Translations under genes and position numbers: made by a program
Notes under the pieces: model-generated
Told to the model about the DNA's origin: nothing
Seen by the model: only the letters and a program-made list of their open reading frames with translations
Database searches by the model: none
NCBI GenBank assembly: GCA_024180945.1
Contig: JAKSGN010000006.1
Span: 4,278,001-4,342,000 of the forward strand
Source: Macrophomina tecta
Lineage: Eukaryota > Ascomycota > Dothideomycetes > Botryosphaeriales > Botryosphaeriaceae
Length of the DNA: 64,000 bases
Reading direction: 5' to 3'
Shown: positions 13,571-26,146 of the stretch, one piece after another
How the letters are laid out: the number at the start of each line of letters is the position of its first letter
Numbering within the stretch: the stretch's first letter is position 1

Positions 13571-13575
13571 ATAGG
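13571..13575. repeat. Target site duplication, left copy (ATAGG)
   Basis: ATAGG immediately before the left LTR; the same five bases follow the right LTR at 21368-21372. Five-base duplications are normal for Ty3/gypsy integrases. Confidence 0.95.
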
Positions 13576-14064
13576 TGTAACGAGCGGGCCTCTGCCTCTA
13601 AGGATCCAAACACCGAAGAGGGAGAAAACCTGTCGAGGGGGTTTTCCTTGAGTGGGTACAAGAAGAGGGTGAGAGCAAGTCGAACACGTGACAAGACTGA
13701 GCACTGCGTGCGAAGGCCGTGTTACTAACAATGTGCTGAATTGTTATTGAAGTTGACCACGAAGGTCAAAGCTATCTAAGGAGTGTGGTTTATATACAAG
13801 TAGGAAAGTGTATACAATCTAGTTTCTGATCCGTCTGCTCTGTCCCTCGGGAGGGCGGTGACCTTGGGAGCAGACAGAGTAGCTTGTCCTGCTCTGGGTG
13901 CTCTGTGGTGTTCCGGTCCGAGCGCCTTCGGAGCAGTGAGAGCACTATCTTGGCGTCACGTGCTTCACGTGAGCGCGCGTGGGTCCTTTCCACGCCGCAC
14001 CCGAGCTCCCCACTTACTACCTCATCCTGCTGTTCCCTAACCCTGTGGAGGCTGCGCCGTAACA
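13576..14064 (-). repeat. Downstream (3') LTR of the element
   Basis: 489 bp, identical by eye to 20879-21367. Contains a TATATA core at 13790-13797, and CACGTG E-boxes at 13685-13690, 13957-13962 and 13966-13971. It lies directly upstream of the antisense gene at 14162 and could supply that gene's promoter. Confidence 0.96.
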
Positions 14065-17000
14065 CTATCCCCCCTTTTAGGTCCTTCGGCCCGAAGGATT
14101 CCGTGACGTGTATAAGTTCTTGGTAGGTGACCTTCGCTTCCTTCCGTGACTTTCGCTCATCATGCCCAAGGTTTCTTCGACGCAACGTCGCCACGCGCTC
14201 GTCAGTCGCTGCCGATACGAGATGCCTTCCCCCTGCAGCGCTTGTCGTGCCGCTGGTGCGAAGTGTTTCATTAGCTTGGATTCGGGGCACTGCAAGCGCT
14301 GTTTGTCGAAGAACCGTAAATGCGACTTGGTGGTTTCTCAGCGCGACTGTGTGTCTTCCCCGCTTGTTCTCTGTCCTGGCTGACTTTTGTAGGGGCGAAA
14401 ATTGACGCGGAAGTGGAGAAGGTGGAGGATCAGCTGGAGCGCCTTCATGAGGATGAGCGTCAAATTCTGGTGGAGGAGTTAAAACTCCAGGAGCGTCGTT
14501 CCGAGGTGTACGCTCGTCGTCATCGCTTAAAGAAGCAACTCGCTCTTCTTGAGCGTAAGCGGAAGGGGATGTTTGAACGCGAGCTAGCGTCCATCGAGGA
14601 GTTGGAAAAACTCGAAAAGGAGGATCGCGACAGGCGACGTGCAGCTGGCGAGGACGTGCCAACTCCGGAACGTTCTCCGAGTCCTCCTGTTGTTGCGGGC
14701 TCCTCGAATTCTGGAGGTCCTCAGCCTGACTCGGTGGCTGGGATTGCGTTTCCGTCTGGGGCTGAGTTGTGGATGGATCCGTCCTTCTGGGGCGACCCCG
14801 TTTCCGCGGGAGGTCAGGGTTCTGGCGATGGAATTCTGTGACGAGATCTGGGTGTATGTCGTCCTTTGGCACCCACTGGTTGTCTTCATTTCCGTAACCC
14901 TCCCATTTGACGAGATATTTGAGCTGACGTCCGAACCGCTTGCAGTCTAGGATCTTCTCGACTGGGTACTGGGTTTCTTCGGCGTCAGGGTTTTCTGGTA
15001 CAATCTCTTCTTGAGTTTCTGGGATGGTGGCGTTTTCTGGTGCTGGCTCGAGCAATGCCACGTGAAAGGTAGAGTTCATTCGTGTGTTAGGCAATTTGAG
15101 TCGATAAGTGACTTCTCCCAGTTTTTTTGCAATTTCGAATGGACCGATTTTCTTGAAATCCAATTTGTCGCTCGGTCGTTTTGATTTGATGTTTTTCGTG
15201 AGGAGGTACACTTTATCCCCCCTTTTAAGGTTCGGTGCCGCCTGGTGCCGTCTGTTGTAGTATTTGGACATCATGATTCGTACATATTCGAGGTCGAGAC
15301 TGATGGCTTTGTGCAATCCTCTTAGCTGCTCGGCCTTGAGAACACCTTTCTGGGCCAATTTCCTGCTTGGGATGGCTTCTCTATACGCGTCTGGTTCAAA
15401 CCCATAGTTGGCAAAGAACGGGGATACGTTGGTTGACTCTTGTTTGGCGCTGTTATAGGCGAATTGTGCCGTGGGCAGCCATGTGGCCCAGTCATCCTGT
15501 GGGTAGTTGATGTAACAGCGGAGATATTGTTCGAGAGTCCGGTTCATCCGTTCTGTCTGGCCGTCGGTTTGCGCGTGTGCCGTTGTAGAGAGTTTGTTCT
15601 TTGCTCCAAGCTGGCGCGTAAGTGTTTGCCAAAATTCCGATCTCATCAGCTTGTCCCTGTCCGAGACCAATACTTCCGGCATTCCGTGATCCGCGAAGAT
15701 GTATCGGAGAAACGTGTAGGCTAGCTGTTCTGCATTCGATGCTTCTAGGTAGGGCAAAAAGCATGCGTACTTCGTGAGTCTGTCGACAAAGACTAGGATC
15801 GAGTCGAATTTGACTCCTGTGAGCGGATCTCTGGACTCTGGTAGCTTCGTGATGAAGTCTAGTGTGATCCATTGCCATGGTCGTTCTGGTACTTCCAGGG
15901 GTTGTAGTTGTCCGTACGGAGCGTGTGTCGCGGCTTTGCTTCGGATGCAAAGGTCGCATTGTGAAACTATACGCTGGACCATTTTTCGTAATCCTGGAAA
16001 GTAGAAGTTTTGCGTGATCCTCTCGGTCGTTCTGTCGATGCCCTGATGTCCATGCGCGGGTGCTACGTGCATGTCCTTGACGAGTGCTTCTCGCAGTCTT
16101 GTCGGGACATAAATTAATCCTTTGAAGAGAAGCATTCCTTCCCTATCTCGAGCAACACGCGGGTCGTCCTCCAGCGCTAAAAGTTCCTGCGCGAAGGAGT
16201 CCTGAGCGTATGCTTCTCGGATTTTCTGATGCCACGGGTTTGACTCGATGCGAAGCATTGGGAAAGATTGTCTGGCAAGGGTGAGCGATCCATCGCTTGT
16301 CCACTGCAATACTGCAGGTTGCGGCTCGATTCTTCCTTCCATGTAGTCTACCCTTCTGCTGAGCGCGTCAGCGGCGGCGTTGTCTACACCTTTTCTGTGC
16401 GTGATCTTGAAATTGTAGGATGCCAATTCTTGTGACCAGCGAACCTGTCGTCGGTTCAGCTCCTTGGTCGTGGTGAAGCGTGTGAGATTCTGATGGTCGC
16501 AATGCACTATCACCTGTTGGTCGGCTCCTTCCAGGTAGTGTCTCCAGTGCTTGAATGCTGAGACGATAGCCAAGAGCTCCTTATCATGAGTGTCGTAGTT
16601 GAGCTCTGCTGGGGTGAACTTTCTTGAGTAGAACGCGATCGGGTGCCATCTGCCTTCCTCGTCAGGCTGGCTGAGACATGCTCCTAGGGCGAATCCTGAC
16701 GCATCAGTCTCTACTTCGATCGGTTTGTCGGGATCGTATATCCCCAAGACGGGTGCTTCGCAAAACATCCGTTTCAGCGAATCGAAGGCTTGTTGCTGAT
16801 CGTCTCCCCATTGGAAGCCATGCTCCTTCTGAGTGAGTCGCGTTAAAGGTTCCGTGACCTTTGAATAGTTCCAGATGAATTTCCTGTAGAAGTTCGCGAA
16901 CCCAAGGAAGGACTGTACTTCCTTGATCGTCTTTGGTACTGGCCATTCTCTGATGGAATCCAGTTTCGAGTCGTCCATACCGACATGTCCGGGGGTGATG

Positions 17001-18979
17001 ACAAAGCCTAAGAATTCTGTTCTTTGTACGTGCCACTCGCACTTATCGGGTGCGATGGTCAGGTTCTTGGCTTGGAGGGTTTCTAGGACTTTTCTGACAT
17101 GCTTCTTGTGTTCCTCGAGTGTTTCTGAGAAGATGAGGATATCGTCGAGGTATGCCAGGCAGAAGATGTCTAAGTATTCGCGCAGCGTGTCGTTGACGAG
17201 CGACTGAAAGGTTGCTGGCGCGTTTGTAAGCCCGAATGGCATTACCGTGTACTCGTAGAGTCCTAGCCTCGTTCTGAAGGCTGTCTTCCATTCTTCCCCT
17301 TCTTTGATCCTAACCAGGTGATATCCGTCCCTGAGGTCCAGTTTCGTGAAGTACTTTGCATTCCCTAACTTGTCCTGGAGCTCATCGATGCGTGGGAGCG
17401 GGTATCGGTTCTTGATCGTGATGTCGTTGAGTTGTCGATAGTCGACGCAGAGGCGTAGCTTGCCATTCTTCTTGGGGACGAAGAGGATCGGATATCCGGC
17501 TGATGACGTTGATGGTCGAACGTATCCTCGTTCGAGGTTCTTCTCGATGTATTCCTTCAAAGCCTCCATTTCCTTCTTCGATAAGGAGTAGATAGGCTTG
17601 TAAGCCGGTTTCGTTCCTGGCTTGAGCGGAATCTCGTGGTCCCATGGTTGATGTTTGGGCAAGTCTCCTTTTCCTCTTTCTTGGCAAACGGCAACTAAGT
17701 CCCAATACTCTTCGGGTACCGTTTCCATTTCTGGTATTGGAGGTGTTCCTTGTGGTTGCTGCCACATCTCCAAACTGCCGTGTTGTCCTCCTTTGATCCT
17801 CGCAGGATCATCTCCTCCGATGGGAGTTGGACAGTCCTCATCCCTTGGCCTTTCCCGTTGGGCCCTGGCCAATGCTCTTTGTTGCACCGCCGGTGAGGGT
17901 TTGATGTACATGAGGCAGACCTGTTGTCCTTGGCGTCGCATACGCCTGAATGCCTCTCCTGAGATTGTCTGGACGTCTACGGGAGGTTCCAGGGCTGCCA
18001 ATTGCTTCCGCGAAGCCTTACTCTTGGCCTTACGCTTTTTCCGCGTAGTCCTTCGTGATAAGTGTTGTACCTGAATTTCGGGAATACTTGACTCGGTAGG
18101 GCTTACTCCGCTTGAGGCGCTGCATTTTACCGAGGAGGCGGCGTCTCGTACGCTGCAGTCCTGGTCCTGTCTTAGGCCTTCCTCAAGGTTGCCGTTGATG
18201 CTGCCGTCACTGGGCCTTACGCCATCGTTTGAGTCTTGCGTTTCTTCTGATGATTCGAGGGTATCGTTTCGCTCAGTAGGGCTTATTCCTGCGATAGGGT
18301 TGCATTTTACCAAGGAGGCTTCGCCTTCTGCGTCGCAGTCCTGGTTCTGACTTACACCACTATCGGAGTCGCCTACACAGTTGCCACATTCAGGCCTTAC
18401 ACTGGCTACTTCCCGTTTCATGCTGAAGATGTATCCTTGGAAGATGTCTAGCAGTTCCTGTTTGATGTTCTTATAACTGCTTTCTGGGTTCTCGATGATG
18501 TCCCAAATATCCTGTCGTAGGAAGAGTGTATCGCTCGCCCAGTCGATGAGGGGGTTGCGAGTCCTGAGCCAAGGCATTCCGAGGATAACGTCGTGTCCCG
18601 GGATCCTTTGGACATCAAGGGTGACCCAATCGGTGTGTCCGTTGATTTCTAGTGAGACTTCTTCTGTTTCGATGCGCACCCATCCTCCTCCGTAGTCGGC
18701 GTTTCTTCCGTCGAATCCGCTGAGAGAGTAGGGTTCTTTCTTTTTTCGATAAGGGATGTTCAGTTCTTGTACTAGCTCGTTGTGGATGAAGTCTCCGCTT
18801 GATCCACTGTCGACTAGTATCGAGATCGTGCGTCCTCGCAGGACTCCGGTGATCTTGAATTGCCCCCAAAGTTTCTTTCCAGTGAGAGTTTCCGTTTCCG
18901 ATGTGCGTGATACCATGTGAAGGGACCTAGACTGTGGCCCCTGGGTCGATCCCAATGCCGTAGGGCCGTCTAGTTTTTT
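13790..18979 (-). CDS. pol: Pol polyprotein (PR-RT-RNaseH-IN-chromodomain)
   Basis: Open in the -1 frame relative to gag from the slippery site to TAA at 13792-13790. Numbering from 18955: protease DSGSS at 49-53; RT catalytic YLDD at 602-605; RNase H with ETDASGFALGA and the THDKELLAIV segment; integrase HHCC zinc domain (HxHQGIDRT..CDLC), catalytic D1033, D1099 and E1135 with D-x35-E spacing; GPF motif (KKIGPFEIAKKLG); chromodomain at about 1326-1380 (YPVEKILDCKRFGRQLKYLVKWEGYGNEDNQW). All catalytic residues are present. After the chromodomain the frame stays open for 338 more codons of Pro/Gln/Arg-rich sequence, antisense to the Zn2Cys6 gene and into the LTR. The frame has no ATG at its beginning, which agrees with expression only as a Gag-Pol fusion. 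Confidence 0.95.
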   Translation of the reverse strand, partial: KKLDGPTALGSTQGPQSRSLHMVSRTSETETLTGKKLWGQFKITGVLRGRTISILVDSGSSGDFIHNELVQELNIPYRKKKEPYSLSGFDGRNADYGGGWVRIETEEVSLEINGHTDWVTLDVQRIPGHDVILGMPWLRTRNPLIDWASDTLFLRQDIWDIIENPESSYKNIKQELLDIFQGYIFSMKREVASVRPECGNCVGDSDSGVSQNQDCDAEGEASLVKCNPIAGISPTERNDTLESSEETQDSNDGVRPSDGSINGNLEEGLRQDQDCSVRDAASSVKCSASSGVSPTESSIPEIQVQHLSRRTTRKKRKAKSKASRKQLAALEPPVDVQTISGEAFRRMRRQGQQVCLMYIKPSPAVQQRALARAQRERPRDEDCPTPIGGDDPARIKGGQHGSLEMWQQPQGTPPIPEMETVPEEYWDLVAVCQERGKGDLPKHQPWDHEIPLKPGTKPAYKPIYSLSKKEMEALKEYIEKNLERGYVRPSTSSAGYPILFVPKKNGKLRLCVDYRQLNDITIKNRYPLPRIDELQDKLGNAKYFTKLDLRDGYHLVRIKEGEEWKTAFRTRLGLYEYTVMPFGLTNAPATFQSLVNDTLREYLDIFCLAYLDDILIFSETLEEHKKHVRKVLETLQAKNLTIAPDKCEWHVQRTEFLGFVITPGHVGMDDSKLDSIREWPVPKTIKEVQSFLGFANFYRKFIWNYSKVTEPLTRLTQKEHGFQWGDDQQQAFDSLKRMFCEAPVLGIYDPDKPIEVETDASGFALGACLSQPDEEGRWHPIAFYSRKFTPAELNYDTHDKELLAIVSAFKHWRHYLEGADQQVIVHCDHQNLTRFTTTKELNRRQVRWSQELASYNFKITHRKGVDNAAADALSRRVDYMEGRIEPQPAVLQWTSDGSLTLARQSFPMLRIESNPWHQKIREAYAQDSFAQELLALEDDPRVARDREGMLLFKGLIYVPTRLREALVKDMHVAPAHGHQGIDRTTERITQNFYFPGLRKMVQRIVSQCDLCIRSKAATHAPYGQLQPLEVPERPWQWITLDFITKLPESRDPLTGVKFDSILVFVDRLTKYACFLPYLEASNAEQLAYTFLRYIFADHGMPEVLVSDRDKLMRSEFWQTLTRQLGAKNKLSTTAHAQTDGQTERMNRTLEQYLRCYINYPQDDWATWLPTAQFAYNSAKQESTNVSPFFANYGFEPDAYREAIPSRKLAQKGVLKAEQLRGLHKAISLDLEYVRIMMSKYYNRRHQAAPNLKRGDKVYLLTKNIKSKRPSDKLDFKKIGPFEIAKKLGEVTYRLKLPNTRMNSTFHVALLEPAPENATIPETQEEIVPENPDAEETQYPVEKILDCKRFGRQLKYLVKWEGYGNEDNQWVPKDDIHPDLVTEFHRQNPDLPRKRGRPRRTDPSTTQPQTETQSQPPSQAEDLQNSRSPQQQEDSENVPELARPRQLHVACRDPPFRVFPTPRWTLARVQTSPSAYAQEERVASLSDDDERTPRNDAPGVLTPPPEFDAHPHEGAPADPPPSPLPRQFSPLQKSARTENKRGRHTVALRNHQVAFTVLRQTALAVPRIQANETLRTSGTTSAAGGRHLVSAATDERVATLRRRNLGHDERKSRKEAKVTYQELIHVTESFGPKDLKGGIVLRRSLHRVREQQDEVVSGELGCGVERTHARSREARDAKIVLSLLRRRSDRNTTEHPEQDKLLCLLPRSPPSRGTEQTDQKLDCIHFPTCI
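14065..14079 (-). other. Polypurine tract (plus-strand primer)
   Basis: In element sense the bases just before the 3' LTR read AAAAGGGGGGATAG. A purine run touching the LTR is the expected primer for second-strand DNA synthesis. Confidence 0.85.
14162..14841 (+). CDS. Antisense Zn2Cys6-coiled-coil gene in retroelement
   Basis: Lies on the strand opposite to gag-pol, between the chromodomain end of pol and the 3' LTR. Exons 14162-14348 and 14393-14841 are joined over a 44-bp intron (GTGTGT ... CTGAC ... TTTGTAG) that keeps the frame and gives 211 aa. Residues 25-54 have six cysteines spaced C-x2-C-x6-C-x8-C-x2-C-x6-C, exactly the fungal Zn(II)2Cys6 binuclear cluster pattern. After the junction (SQRDWAKIDAEVEK) comes about 90 residues of Glu/Lys/Arg/Leu-rich coiled coil with repeated LE/EE heptad-like blocks, then a Pro/Ser/Gly tail. 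Such a cluster followed by a coiled coil suggests DNA binding and dimer formation, but no activation domain is seen. An intron in this direction would survive retrotransposition because the genomic RNA is its complement. The role is unknown; regulation of the element or a host target are both possible. Confidence 0.75.
18930..18979 (-). promoter_or_regulatory. -1 ribosomal frameshift signal gag/pol
   Basis: In element sense the gag end reads CCA AAA AAC TAG. A AAA AAC (18979-18973) is a classical X XXY YYZ slippery heptamer, and the gag stop follows at once. Shifting back one base opens the pol frame. Five bases after the heptamer, GGCCC can pair with GGGCC (+ strand 18963-18967 and 18936-18940), enclosing an inner TGGG/CCCA stem with an ATCGA loop. 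Spacing and layout fit programmed -1 frameshifting. Confidence 0.8.
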
Positions 18980-20787
18980 GGCTTCGGATAGCCGTAGACT
19001 TCACTGTGCATGTAGTCTTCCCATTCGTTGACTTGAAGGTATGCTTGTTTCCAGTTGGTCCATTTATTGGTGCGCAACTGTTTTCGCTGGTAGACTATGT
19101 CCTTTCGCACCTGGTATCGGAAGGTTGGCATGTTGAGTTTCTCGTCCGGTATCCACTGGAGTGTGTGGTTCTGGATGGTTGCCGTGCCATGCTGACAAAG
19201 AATCCTTGCTAACTCTCGGAGGGAGTCGTAGTCTGCTTGCTGTCGAGCAGTCATTCCTTGATGATGGAGCGTCACGAGTGCGGTTTCCTTTGTGACGATG
19301 AGTTCGTACTTCTTTCCATCTTGCTCGATTCGGGTTTCCCAGAGGGTCCCTTGGCGCCATGTCCACAGCACCGTGAGGGCCAATCCTCTCTCGTGGGGAA
19401 TCCAGATTACCTGGGCGAGTTGATCGTTCTCGTCCGTCATTTCTGCGCTAATCCCGTACTTGGCTGCAAGGCGCTCGAGTTCCGGAAGGGTTGTGGGGTC
19501 CGGCACAGCTTCTGCTTCGCTGTCCGTTGAGTCGTATAGTTCTCCGGTTTCGCTGTTCGCGAGCTCCTCGTCCAAGGGGAAGCTGTTAATAATATCGTCG
19601 GTCTCGATGACTTCTTCGTTCCTAGTCATCATACCGAATTGTCGCGGTTCGTGGGGGTACCATCCCGATATGTCTTTGCTGCTTTGGTGCATCTGGCAGT
19701 CATCGTCGTAGCAGGCTGTCCAGTGCAGCGTATCATGGTTGTCTTGGCGGGATGCGACCGATGCTTCGCGCTGAGCGCTCGAGGTCTGCTTTCCATCCTT
19801 CTTGTTTCGAGGGTTCTGCGGACACTTGGGAGAAAAGTGTTTGTCACTGCCGCAGGTGATGCAGAGTCGATCCTTGTAGCGCTGTTTCTGTTCGTCCGTC
19901 CAGTTCGGATTAGGTCCTTTGGGCTTCTTGTTGCTGTTTCGACCCTTATTTCCTTTCTTATCATCTTGACGGTTGGCGGCGTCGAGGGCCATAGCGTCTC
20001 CGCCTTCGAGGGTTGTTCTTTCACGGCGAGGCTTCGAGGTGTTGGCTTGTCGAGAACCCATTTTCCATTCGTACATGCGACCGTCGATCTGAGACGCAAG
20101 GTCTACCATCTTCTGGAAGGTGGATGGGTATTCGTGGGTAATCATGTTCTTCTTGACTTCTTCCTTCAGGCCTTTGTAGAAGAGGTCGCGGAAAGTCTCG
20201 TCTGACCATTCGAGGTAGGCTGCAAGCTGTTGAAACTTGGTTGCGTAGACAGCTACAGACCCTAGTTGTTTAACGGTCATGATATCGTTAGAGGCTTTGC
20301 GGACTTCATCCCGATCGTTGAAAGTGGCCCTAAGGTTGTCTGCGAATCCCGTGTAGGTGCCGAAGATTTCCTTGGTCTTTTCTCGTCTCTTCTCGAGAGA
20401 GTGTTCGTTGGCTAGGTGGTCGCGAAGGTATGGTTCCATCCATGCCTCTGCCGTTCCTCTGAGGTAGGTTGATGCGAAGAGTACTTCCTCGGCGTCGCTG
20501 TCGAATTGCGCTTGATTGAACTGGAGGTAGCGTTGCATCTGGAGTAGGAATGATTGAAGCTTCTTCCTGTCCCCATCGAACTTCTCGGGTGCCGCTACTT
20601 TAACCTTAGTAGCGCTCCGCTTTGTCGTGTGCTCGATCAGTCGAGCGTTCTGAGTCTTCAGCTCCTCGATGAGCTGCAAGAGCTCAGCTCTGGTGGGCTC
20701 CGTTTGCTGTGCGGGCTGAGCTGGCCCCTGGACACCCTGAACCTGACCCTCGGCCGGGTCGACCTCCATCTGAGATCCTGGTGCCAT
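18970..20787 (-). CDS. gag: Gag polyprotein with CCHC zinc knuckle
   Basis: 605 aa from ATG 20787 to TAG 18970. The N-terminus has a Gln/Pro-rich start and a short coiled coil (ELLQLIEELKTQNARL), then the retrotransposon capsid region (KFDGDRKKLQSFLLQMQRYL, STYLRGTAEAWMEPYL, typical of the gag-capsid family). The nucleocapsid zinc knuckle is at residues 309-322, CITCGSDKHFSPKC, spaced C-x2-C-x4-H-x4-C. About 280 residues follow the knuckle, longer than in most Ty3 elements; they contain an acidic stretch and no recognised domain. Gag forms the virus-like particle and packages the RNA. The leader between the 5' LTR and this ATG is 92 bases. Confidence 0.95.
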   Translation of the reverse strand: MAPGSQMEVDPAEGQVQGVQGPAQPAQQTEPTRAELLQLIEELKTQNARLIEHTTKRSATKVKVAAPEKFDGDRKKLQSFLLQMQRYLQFNQAQFDSDAEEVLFASTYLRGTAEAWMEPYLRDHLANEHSLEKRREKTKEIFGTYTGFADNLRATFNDRDEVRKASNDIMTVKQLGSVAVYATKFQQLAAYLEWSDETFRDLFYKGLKEEVKKNMITHEYPSTFQKMVDLASQIDGRMYEWKMGSRQANTSKPRRERTTLEGGDAMALDAANRQDDKKGNKGRNSNKKPKGPNPNWTDEQKQRYKDRLCITCGSDKHFSPKCPQNPRNKKDGKQTSSAQREASVASRQDNHDTLHWTACYDDDCQMHQSSKDISGWYPHEPRQFGMMTRNEEVIETDDIINSFPLDEELANSETGELYDSTDSEAEAVPDPTTLPELERLAAKYGISAEMTDENDQLAQVIWIPHERGLALTVLWTWRQGTLWETRIEQDGKKYELIVTKETALVTLHHQGMTARQQADYDSLRELARILCQHGTATIQNHTLQWIPDEKLNMPTFRYQVRKDIVYQRKQLRTNKWTNWKQAYLQVNEWEDYMHSEVYGYPKPKN

Positions 20788-20854
20788 TGCTGTTTCCTAA
20801 ACTCGTTAGGGGGTGATACCTTACCCGATGAGACTTGATCTCGGAACCTTCCTC

Positions 20855-20878: not shown

Positions 20879-21367
20879 TGTAACGAGCGGGCCTCTGCCT
20901 CTAAGGATCCAAACACCGAAGAGGGAGAAAACCTGTCGAGGGGGTTTTCCTTGAGTGGGTACAAGAAGAGGGTGAGAGCAAGTCGAACACGTGACAAGAC
21001 TGAGCACTGCGTGCGAAGGCCGTGTTACTAACAATGTGCTGAATTGTTATTGAAGTTGACCACGAAGGTCAAAGCTATCTAAGGAGTGTGGTTTATATAC
21101 AAGTAGGAAAGTGTATACAATCTAGTTTCTGATCCGTCTGCTCTGTCCCTCGGGAGGGCGGTGACCTTGGGAGCAGACAGAGTAGCTTGTCCTGCTCTGG
21201 GTGCTCTGTGGTGTTCCGGTCCGAGCGCCTTCGGAGCAGTGAGAGCACTATCTTGGCGTCACGTGCTTCACGTGAGCGCGCGTGGGTCCTTTCCACGCCG
21301 CACCCGAGCTCCCCACTTACTACCTCATCCTGCTGTTCCCTAACCCTGTGGAGGCTGCGCCGTAACA
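20879..21367 (-). repeat. Upstream (5') LTR of the element
   Basis: 489 bp, identical by eye to 13576-14064. In element sense it carries the promoter; a TATATAAA box lies at 21099-21092. Confidence 0.96.
21092..21099 (-). promoter_or_regulatory. LTR TATA box driving gag-pol
   Basis: Reads TATATAAA on the minus strand, about 270 bases into the 5' LTR in element sense, leaving about 210 bases of LTR downstream for the transcribed R-U5 part. Confidence 0.6.
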
Positions 21368-21372
21368 ATAGG
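21368..21372. repeat. Target site duplication, right copy (ATAGG)
   Basis: Matches 13571-13575. Confidence 0.95.
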
Positions 21373-24682: not shown

Positions 24683-26146
24683 TCGTGCAGCGAATTTGTG
24701 CCGAATATGAATAAGGTGCAGATGGCTCACTAGCACAAAAGCCTAAAGACAGCGATAGATATTGAATACTCGAAAGAGGTAGGTAGCGTTAGCGGTGATA
24801 GCTAAGTATACATGACTTTCAACTAAGCGCCGTAAGTGATGATATATAACGGACAGCACTCGTTAAGTAGTGGTAAACACCCCTCCTACTATTAGTCTAT
24901 ATTGGTATAATGTCATTTAAGAGTTTGGTCGTGGCACTTTCGCGTTTATACTGGCACGGATAGTAGCGCCGGTATAAGAACTGAGGTTGATGTACTAAAG
25001 GGGATACCAAGCTTTAGAGGCTTGACTCAGTATGTTGCTAATATTTTCTACCTCGTGTGCACGTTCGACAACGGCTTTTTGTACAACATGCCAGGGCAAA
25101 CACACTGAGCTGCGGACAACAATTTCTTCCAGACGACGTAGTGGACATGATGAGCGCCACTACAATCTCGGTGCGTGAGGCGCAGGCAGAGATGGAGCAT
25201 CAACGCAGACCATCAAGGCTAAATTTCGTGAGGGGTCCTCATGTTATCCAAAGAAGGATAAAGGGAGTACAAGAGGCATTTGCGCGGACTGGACCAACGC
25301 GCAGGAGGCCACCAAAGCAAAACCGAAGCACCCGCACTCTGTAACATATCGCTTCATCACGGTTGGGATGCAGCTACCGCAATGCGGTCTGTTGAAAGTT
25401 CAAGCAGGAACGCTCTCGAACCGAACCCACGGGCCACCGCACGACCAAAAGACTCACGGGAGCAAAACAAATATACGTACAACAGCCGGGATTCCCCAAT
25501 GGTCACCCACTTGAGTACTAATCGGCCGGTTCGCAGCTTAAGTACGGCTGAGCGGACGGGAAGCCCTGTATTCTGCGACCTGTGGTCGTACGTGACGAGC
25601 ATGATTGCTGGCAAGTTACATGAACCCATATTTGCTGACTGCCTGTTGACCATGAGGTGAACGTCTGGCAATGTTGCATTGATACCTCTTGACCTGAATA
25701 GTACTATTGGATAACTCATACTAAAGCCCCGAGCTCCTCAATCAATGCTGTGTTGCATCCACAAGGTGGACTATCGCAACCCGCAGCTTCGCCGCGCTTG
25801 CCCTCATCTCCATCGCTTAGCAGTGTGAGGCCCGACTCGGAGGGGACAGATAGCAAAGGGGAATTCATGATCCATAATATCAACGTCTTGTTCCTCTGAT
25901 ACGAAGACTAGGAACTCCCGCGTACCTGCGCCATTTCCAAGATTCTAACTTCACAAACCTAGATTCTGGGGCAAAGTCTGTCCAGTTGCATTCCTGTCCA
26001 AGCCTGGCGGGTTAAACGGATAGCTGTTGCATGTACGTAGCCTGCTCAGTATTTCCCCCTGCCTGTATGCTCCGATGCACCCAAAAACAAGATAGTCCTC
26101 GGCTTCAGGATCGACATAATAGCTGTGAAGCTAACATGTTTCGCGC
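24683..26146. other. AT-richer, gene-poor stretch
   Basis: Short frames rich in stops. Around 25057-25340 fragments such as LVCTFDNGFLYNMPGQ are interrupted by several stops, which may be further decayed gene sequence. Nothing intact. Confidence 0.4.

What the first reader, a model, noticed from the sequence alone, without database searches (positions are those of the whole stretch)
14162..14841. Spliced antisense Zn2Cys6-coiled-coil gene carried by a Ty3 retrotransposon
Seen: opposite to gag-pol, between the chromodomain end and the 3' LTR, two exons code 211 residues with six cysteines in exact C-x2-C-x6-C-x8-C-x2-C-x6-C spacing, then a long charged coiled coil. A 44-bp intron with branch point and GT/AG joins them in frame. 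Known: this spacing defines the fungal binuclear zinc cluster of transcription factors; antisense ORFs are known in some plant gypsy elements. Inference: the element carries its own DNA-binding or silencing-control protein. An intron in this direction is invisible to the packaged sense RNA and so survives transposition, which explains why a retroelement can keep one. I have seen no named system of this type.
Basis: partly seen in the sequence, partly recalled or inferred. Interest (0 to 1): 0.88.

Follow-up and report, generated by a model that had tools for sequence, protein, structure and literature searches.

The report
Hidden reverse-strand gene in fungal retrotransposons
Jumping genes of one fungus carry, written backwards inside them, an extra gene that selection has preserved; it is predicted to be spliced and to make a zinc-binding control protein that likely switches the element's own activity.

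Summary
Opposite gag-pol, between chromodomain and 3' LTR of a young Ty3 element (489-bp LTRs, identical), lies a two-exon, 211-codon gene with the stated cysteine spacing. It is a real coding gene, not a shadow of pol. I found twelve divergent versions in this genome; the nine with open coding sequence each have a predicted intron of 44-49 nt. All 40 scored copies of the neighbouring pol stretch (of 189 candidates) have the gene 152-173 bp away. In six pairs of related versions exon-2 dN/dS is 0.20-0.59 in the antisense frame but 0.95-1.34 in the sense frame. Beyond the finding: a 17-bp dyad lies upstream of the gene in 11 of 11 versions examined. Elements 95-98% identical to the window's pol carry antisense proteins only 32-56% alike and (A against E) a different U3. 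The sense pol frame stays open through the gene in 8 of 9 versions. Membership in the Zn2Cys6 family is not supported: Pfam score below cutoff, basic loop missing, four versions break the spacing. There is no RNA evidence. Antisense genes at this place are a known kind (brtn in Boty; Grande gene23). Most likely role: an HBZ-like self-regulator.

The parts
13576..14064 (-). 3' LTR (U3 begins at 14064), 489 bp
   Evidence: identical to 20879-21367
20879..21367 (-). 5' LTR
   Evidence: the element is flanked by the 5-bp duplication ATAGG at 13571-13575 and 21368-21372
14065..14081 (-). polypurine tract and spacer (CCTAAAAGGGGGGATAG on the sense strand)
   Evidence: sequence; similar block in the 11 versions printed
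14082..14098 (.). 17-bp dyad TCCTTCGGCCCGAAGGA (8+1+8), candidate regulatory site
   Evidence: arm of exactly 8 in 11 of 11 versions examined; two outer pairs change on both sides in 7 aligned versions; genome count of the 13-bp core 192 against 5 for the reversed control
14111..14117 (+). TATA-like box (TATAAGT), predicted antisense promoter
   Evidence: at -51; TATA-type box at -51 to -59 in 8 of 11 versions; F, F2 and J have only CTATTTC at -50/-51, a pattern added after inspection
14162..14348 (+). antisense gene exon 1 (six-cysteine region)
   Evidence: constraint
14234..14323 (+). six cysteines, C-x2-C-x6-C-x8-C-x2-C-x6-C
   Evidence: invariant in the 8 versions aligned
14349..14392 (+). 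predicted intron, 44 nt; donor GTGTGT, branch-like CTGAC 14380-14384, acceptor TAG
   Evidence: equivalent intron of 44-49 nt in the nine versions solved
14393..14841 (+). antisense gene exon 2 (long charged helix, then proline/serine-rich tail)
14398..14643 (+). predicted long helix / coiled coil
   Evidence: AlphaFold2 model me40e3d50dbff, helix 2-83
13790..19000 (-). pol open frame (1736 codons stop to stop); its last ~350 codons run through the antisense gene and into U3
18970..20796 (-). gag open frame

Best explanation
Opposite gag-pol the element carries a preserved protein-coding gene that is predicted to be transcribed from its own promoter and spliced, and whose product would be a nuclear, likely dimeric, zinc-binding coiled-coil protein that likely binds the 17-bp dyad beside that promoter and would thereby regulate the element's own transcription. 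Shown by sequence: the gene, its constraint as protein, the conserved intron signals, the fixed dyad, a TATA-type box in 8 of 11 versions, and the occurrence of different 3' blocks (gene and, where compared, U3) on elements with nearly the same pol. Inferred: transcription, splicing, zinc binding, dimerisation, DNA binding, nuclear location (basic KRKR-type N terminus in F, F2, H, I, J, K, not in A), and the sign of control. I favour negative control (an HBZ-like brake that keeps copies below the level that triggers host defence), with positive autoregulation as the main alternative sign.
For: Coding: exon-2 dN/dS 0.20-0.59 in six related pairs (whole protein 0.19-0.44), sense frame of exon 2 0.95-1.34; codon-position bias of transversions, which RIP does not make; exon indels of 6, 9 and 42 nt between A and B and of 6 and 9 between A and C, while the intron differs by 1 and the leader by 2 (A-B) and 9 (A-C). 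Splicing: GT donor, branch-like site and AG acceptor in A, E, F, F2, G, H, I, J, K, intron 44-49 nt, always phase 1; the less decayed B and C copies keep donor and branch-like sites; the public gene model MPH_02168 of Macrophomina matches version H at 91% straight across the predicted junction. Association: 40 of 40 scored pol matches (189 first-look candidates) have an antisense exon-2 match 152-173 bp away; 13 of 13 E copies lack stops in both exons. Site: dyad 8+1+8 in 11 of 11 versions, centre 68-81 bp before ATG, outer pairs changed on both sides; of 8 usable dyad sites with no listed gene, 7 led to one. Precedents: HBZ, a spliced antisense retroviral zipper factor (PMC3185765, abstract and passages); PrnA, a Zn2Cys6 dimer on CCGG-N-CCGG (PMC5983819, one passage).
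Confidence: 0.5

Rival explanations
1. The antisense frame is a shadow of the sense pol tail and the intron and cysteines are coincidence.
For: The sense pol frame is open through the whole antisense gene in 8 of 9 versions.
Against: In exon 2 dN/dS is near 1 in the sense frame and 0.20-0.59 in the antisense frame; transversions peak at antisense position 3, not at the sense wobble; six cysteines invariant in 8 versions; intron lengths differ modulo 3 between versions, so the sense reading over exon 1 changes while the antisense protein does not.
Confidence: 0.02
2. The protein is an accessory factor of the retrotransposition machinery (nuclear import or integration of the cDNA, partner of integrase or Gag) rather than a transcription regulator.
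For: Strict association with this pol (40 of 40 scored); basic N terminus and coiled coil suit a protein-protein adaptor; PMC7264820 (parts 1 and 2 of 3 read) suggests accessory roles for plant antisense genes; the canonical DNA-contact loop is missing.
Against: Versions only 32-56% alike (A, E, F, G) go with nearly identical pol; the dyad-promoter arrangement needs another explanation.
Confidence: 0.22
3. A counter-defence protein: it blocks RNA silencing, RIP or DNA methylation and diversifies under host pressure.
For: High divergence between versions; older copies heavily decayed with CA-to-TA type changes, so host defence is strong.
Against: dN/dS stays well below 1 in the related pairs, no sign of positive selection overall; intact recent families and decayed ones both carry the gene.
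Confidence: 0.15
4. The antisense transcript itself is the functional part (double-stranded RNA with the sense RNA), the protein being secondary.
For: Overlap with the pol 3' end; the review PMC7264820 raises this option.
Against: Clear constraint at the protein level and conserved splice signals.
Confidence: 0.08

Closest known systems
brtn of Boty-like Ty3 elements (Botrytis cinerea; Zhao et al. 2011, paper not held, title seen in reference lists)
   Same: fungal chromodomain Ty3 element with an additional antisense gene; [quoted passage not shown] PMC4227169 describes the element's CHROMO domain
   Different: sequence, domains and splicing of brtn could not be compared here; whether it is homologous is open
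Antisense aORF-3R genes of plant Ty3 elements (Grande gene23, RIRE2, Retand, PvRetro13)
   Same: position between pol and 3' LTR, reverse strand, present in most copies; gene23 is nuclear with its own promoter (PMC7264820)
   Different: the parts of the review that I read name no six-cysteine region, conserved intron or promoter dyad for them; no sequence relation tested
HTLV-1 HBZ
   Same: spliced antisense retroelement gene at the 3' end, nuclear coiled-coil (zipper) regulator of sense transcription (PMC3185765)
   Different: basic zipper, no cysteine cluster known to me; starts inside the 3' LTR; our function is inferred
Fungal Zn2Cys6 transcription factors (GAL4, LEU3, PrnA)
   Same: six cysteines with compatible spacing in several versions followed by a long helix; inverted CGG triplets one base apart resemble the PrnA site
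   Different: below Pfam cutoff, basic loop missing, looser spacing in D, H, I, K

Membership tests
Fungal Zn2Cys6 binuclear cluster | cysteine spacing C-x2-C-x6-C-x5-16-C-x2-C-x6-8-C (range recalled) | tested here: inconclusive
   met by A, B, E, F, F2, G, J; not by H (12), I (11), K (15) nor D (7) in the second gap
Fungal Zn2Cys6 binuclear cluster | Pfam PF00172 score over the gathering cutoff | tested here: not met
   12.5 bits against 21 for A; 14.2 for B; no Zn_clus row for the other seven members of A2 at E up to 5. The window locus is absent from the 149 genome hits listed, but only 150 of 323 candidates were scored
Fungal Zn2Cys6 binuclear cluster | basic loop after the second cysteine (CxxCRxRKxKC) | tested here: not met
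   half-domain scores +2.6 to -13.1 for six versions; mean +20.2 for the 13 host clusters from which the matrix was built, so that yardstick is not held out
Fungal Zn2Cys6 binuclear cluster | profile similarity beyond the cysteines | tested here: inconclusive
   hhalign against 14 host clusters: 47% and score 19.9 for seven versions, 37% and 18.8 for all ten; 60 full column shuffles reach at most 14.6, 60 shuffles with cysteines fixed at most 20.0
Fungal Zn2Cys6 binuclear cluster | two-zinc cluster fold | tested here: inconclusive
Antisense additional ORF class (aORF-3R) | reverse strand, between pol and 3' LTR | tested here: met
Antisense additional ORF class (aORF-3R) | present in most copies of the family and conserved | tested here: met
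   40 of 40 scored pol matches, of 189 candidates; dN/dS
brtn of Boty | sequence homology to BRTN | not testable with these tools
   paper and sequence not held
HBZ-type antisense regulator | represses sense transcription | not testable with these tools
   no expression data

The most novel reading that the evidence does not exclude
A self-control cassette of LTR retrotransposons: a reverse-strand regulator gene, its operator dyad and the element's own U3 promoter travel as one block that is exchanged between elements sharing one pol backbone, so that near-identical retrotransposons in one genome run under different, diversified regulators, as phages do with repressor-operator modules, while the sense pol frame is kept open through the whole gene.
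Probability: 0.3. Interest if true: 0.87.

Novelty: new variant of a known kind. Interest (0 to 1): 0.72.

Why it matters
Antisense genes in LTR retrotransposons have been listed for years without a settled function (PMC7264820). This genome offers a test bed: at least twelve versions, several in young copies, with a predicted intron and a shared promoter dyad. It makes the question whether retrotransposons encode their own transcriptional brake testable by one binding assay and one reporter. It also shows two readings held in one DNA stretch: a constrained antisense protein and a sense frame kept free of stops though its residues drift. Of the 19 public relatives found, the eight that bear a name are called hypothetical or uncharacterized, and annotation by the Pfam zinc-cluster model would not flag the versions scanned here.

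Tried and rejected
Shadow ORF of pol: rejected. Pfam, PDB sequence and PDB fold searches for a known DNA-binding family: only sub-threshold hits, among them GAL4 (E 0.27) and LEU3 (E 0.87), with unrelated proteins scoring better in both lists. Relatives of exon 2 in viral contigs and in prokaryote contigs: none. RNA hairpin reading of the dyad: the sense stretch does not fold better than shuffles; the pair changes alone cannot tell DNA dyad from hairpin. Literature: five searches aimed at antisense genes in fungal, zinc-cluster or chromodomain elements and two for brtn. Searches returned nothing; for the others I saw only the listed titles and abstract starts, and none of these announces such a zinc-cluster gene. 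Only open-licence papers are held, so this is no proof of absence. Rows dropped: in the blind dyad test 2 of 10 sites were fetched on the wrong side and could not be judged; of the 8 usable L088 had no hit and L091 only a short one; the ten were picked by eye as the first listed sites without a gene. In the transversion tables nine named pairs were compared; L018, L019 and L037-L040 were left out of that alignment. For version J the sense frame has one stop. Version C was not in the dyad table. All genome lists are capped to the best candidates.

Full report
What was checked. The host element is a young Ty3 chromovirus on the minus strand: LTRs identical over 489 bp, a 5-bp target duplication, gag and pol open, chromodomain present. 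Five identical copies of the antisense region exist in the genome, this one included, and 42 DNA matches among the candidates scored.

Is it a gene? Older copies have decayed by CA-to-TA type changes, as expected from repeat-induced point mutation, so I first counted transversions, which that process does not make. Between versions A and B (L004 against L023) they fall 11/63, 1/62 and 25/62 on positions 1, 2 and 3 of exon 1 and 11/134, 7/135 and 20/135 in exon 2 (p 3.8e-7 and 0.021); for A against C (L031) p is 0.00037 and 0.018. The sense wobble coincides with antisense position 2 in exon 2, the least changed. Indels in the exons are 6, 9 and 42 bases between A and B and 6 and 9 between A and C. 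For pairs of little-decayed versions (F-F2, F-J, F2-J, H-I, H-K, I-K) dN/dS is 0.19-0.44 over the antisense protein, 0.20-0.59 in its exon 2, and 0.95-1.34 in the sense frame of exon 2; the two distant pairs give 0.62 (E-F) and 0.32 (A-G, near saturation) over the protein against 1.04 and 1.04 in the sense frame.

How widespread. A search with the 3' part of pol, independent of the gene, scored 40 of 189 candidates. All 40 have an antisense exon-2 match 152-173 bp away (coordinates copied). 28 of them are at least 95% identical to the window's pol, yet they carry at least five versions of the gene (A, E, F, F2, G). Versions A, E, F and G are 32-56% alike as proteins. In the LTRs of two E copies the outer ~245 bp (R/U5 side) are 95-96% identical to A, whereas the U3 half does not align apart from its last ~23 bp; B and C copies align to A only over the same outer part, at 79-92%, apart from one short further piece in L022. 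LTRs of F and G were not compared. So the block U3 - polypurine tract - dyad - antisense gene looks like one exchanged cassette. Version F2 looks like a mosaic: F-like at the front, G-like at the end. Adjacency alone could explain joint exchange, since U3 lies at the end of the RNA next to the gene. Version D sits in an element whose pol is only 47% identical in protein. For H, I and K only about 950 bp were fetched; the end of a chromodomain-like frame lies opposite at 47, 32 and 35% identity, for J at 89%. So the gene occurs with more than one pol lineage.

Intron. Each of the nine versions with open coding sequence yields a splice solution with GT donor, CTNAY branch-like site and AG acceptor: 44 (A), 47 (E), 46 (F), 49 (F2), 47 (G), 49 (H), 49 (I), 48 (K), 46 (J) nt, always in phase 1. 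In F and H one alternative donor also gives an open reading, but in F it removes the last cysteine. B and C, though decayed, keep GTAGGT or GTACGT and CTGAC or CTAAC at the same place in their less changed copies. A public gene model of Macrophomina phaseolina, MPH_02168, is 91% identical to version H straight across the predicted junction. The other models do not show it: MPH_13331 joins a few residues differently, MPH_12903 and MPH_13277 read into the intron, MPH_04130 starts after it, and the Aplosporella model skips the cysteines. The named public relatives are from Macrophomina, Aplosporella and Botryosphaeria plus one metagenome protein called hypothetical, all without a functional name (which scored the best 7995 candidates); this suggests a host in the Botryosphaeriales, not proven. 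Whether those relatives lie in Ty3 elements could not be tested.

The protein. All six cysteines and the aspartate after the last are invariant in the eight versions aligned. Exon 2 starts with an 82-residue helix at very high confidence. It is tempting to call it a Zn2Cys6 factor, but the tests do not allow it: Pfam is below cutoff for those scanned; a profile comparison with 14 zinc clusters of the same genome reaches 47% probability with seven versions and 37% with all ten, above 60 full column shuffles but matched by the best of 60 shuffles that keep the cysteines in place; the basic loop that marks the DNA-contacting half is missing (its role is recalled); H, I and K stretch the first loop to 12, 11 and 15 residues. 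The exon-1 model is too poor to judge. I call it zinc-cluster-like.

The promoter. Between polypurine tract and ATG each of 11 versions examined has a perfect dyad of exactly 8+1+8 bases, CTTCGG-C-CCGAAG at its core, with its centre 68-81 bp before the ATG; 8 of 11 have a TATA-type box at -51 to -59, the others (F, F2, J) only CTATTTC, a pattern I added after looking. The outer bases differ between versions and change on both arms together (TCC/GGA, TTC/GAA, ACC/GGT, ATC/GAT). In one search, with 7 versions, 56 of 56 cells pair and the covariation score is reached by 1 of 500 shuffles, but the mere number of two-sided pairs (2) by 132 of 500. The 13-bp core occurs 192 times in the genome against 5 for the same letters reversed; repeats of one family are of course not independent. 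Ten listed sites without a known gene beside them were fetched: two on the wrong side; of the other eight, seven lead to an antisense relative on the expected strand, one of them short. The inverted CGG triplets one base apart resemble the PrnA site CCGG-N-CCGG (PMC5983819, one passage).

Sense frame. In 8 of 9 versions the pol frame is open through the whole antisense gene, intron included; when synonymous codons are shuffled, that happens in 4 to 128 of 2000 trials per version. Related versions are not independent, so I give no joint probability. The sense residues drift freely, so what is preserved is the absence of stops, perhaps to let pol end near the transcript's 3' end. This is inference.

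Mechanism. The anatomy fits a self-regulator: own promoter, dyad at the promoter, a helix that could form a dimer, basic N terminus in several versions. HTLV-1 HBZ is the closest working model: spliced, antisense, nuclear, zipper, damping sense transcription and possibly stimulating its own (PMC3185765, abstract and passages). Transcription, splicing, zinc, dimer, binding and direction of control are all inferred. Main rival: a partner of the integration machinery.

Known or new. [quoted passage not shown] original not held). Not seen in what I could read: the six-cysteine coiled-coil family, its intron, the promoter dyad, the cassette exchange and the open sense frame. I file it as a new variant of a known kind.

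Noticed in passing
window 25474-25593 (-): A 5S rRNA gene, the only Rfam match in the window at gathering threshold (75.6 bits), fitting a fungus with dispersed 5S genes.
   Followed up: no
window 18970-19000 (-): gag and pol open frames overlap by 31 nt in different frames, suggesting a frameshift to make pol.
   Followed up: no
L084-L093: Some old copies are decayed almost to the limit: TA to (CA+TG)/2 ratio up to 68, yet the CTTCGGCCCGAAG core survives in them; it holds no CA or TG, so this decay would spare it.
   Followed up: partly
L080 (C36:243600-245200): Mosaic antisense gene: front like version F, last part like version G.
   Followed up: partly
L002 (C27), 3' LTR: One of the five identical copies has about 110 bp extra inside its 3' LTR.
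   Followed up: no
L085, L093: In these copies the central base of the dyad is the complement (G in antisense orientation, judged from the side of the polypurine tract), so the centre is not strictly fixed.
   Followed up: no
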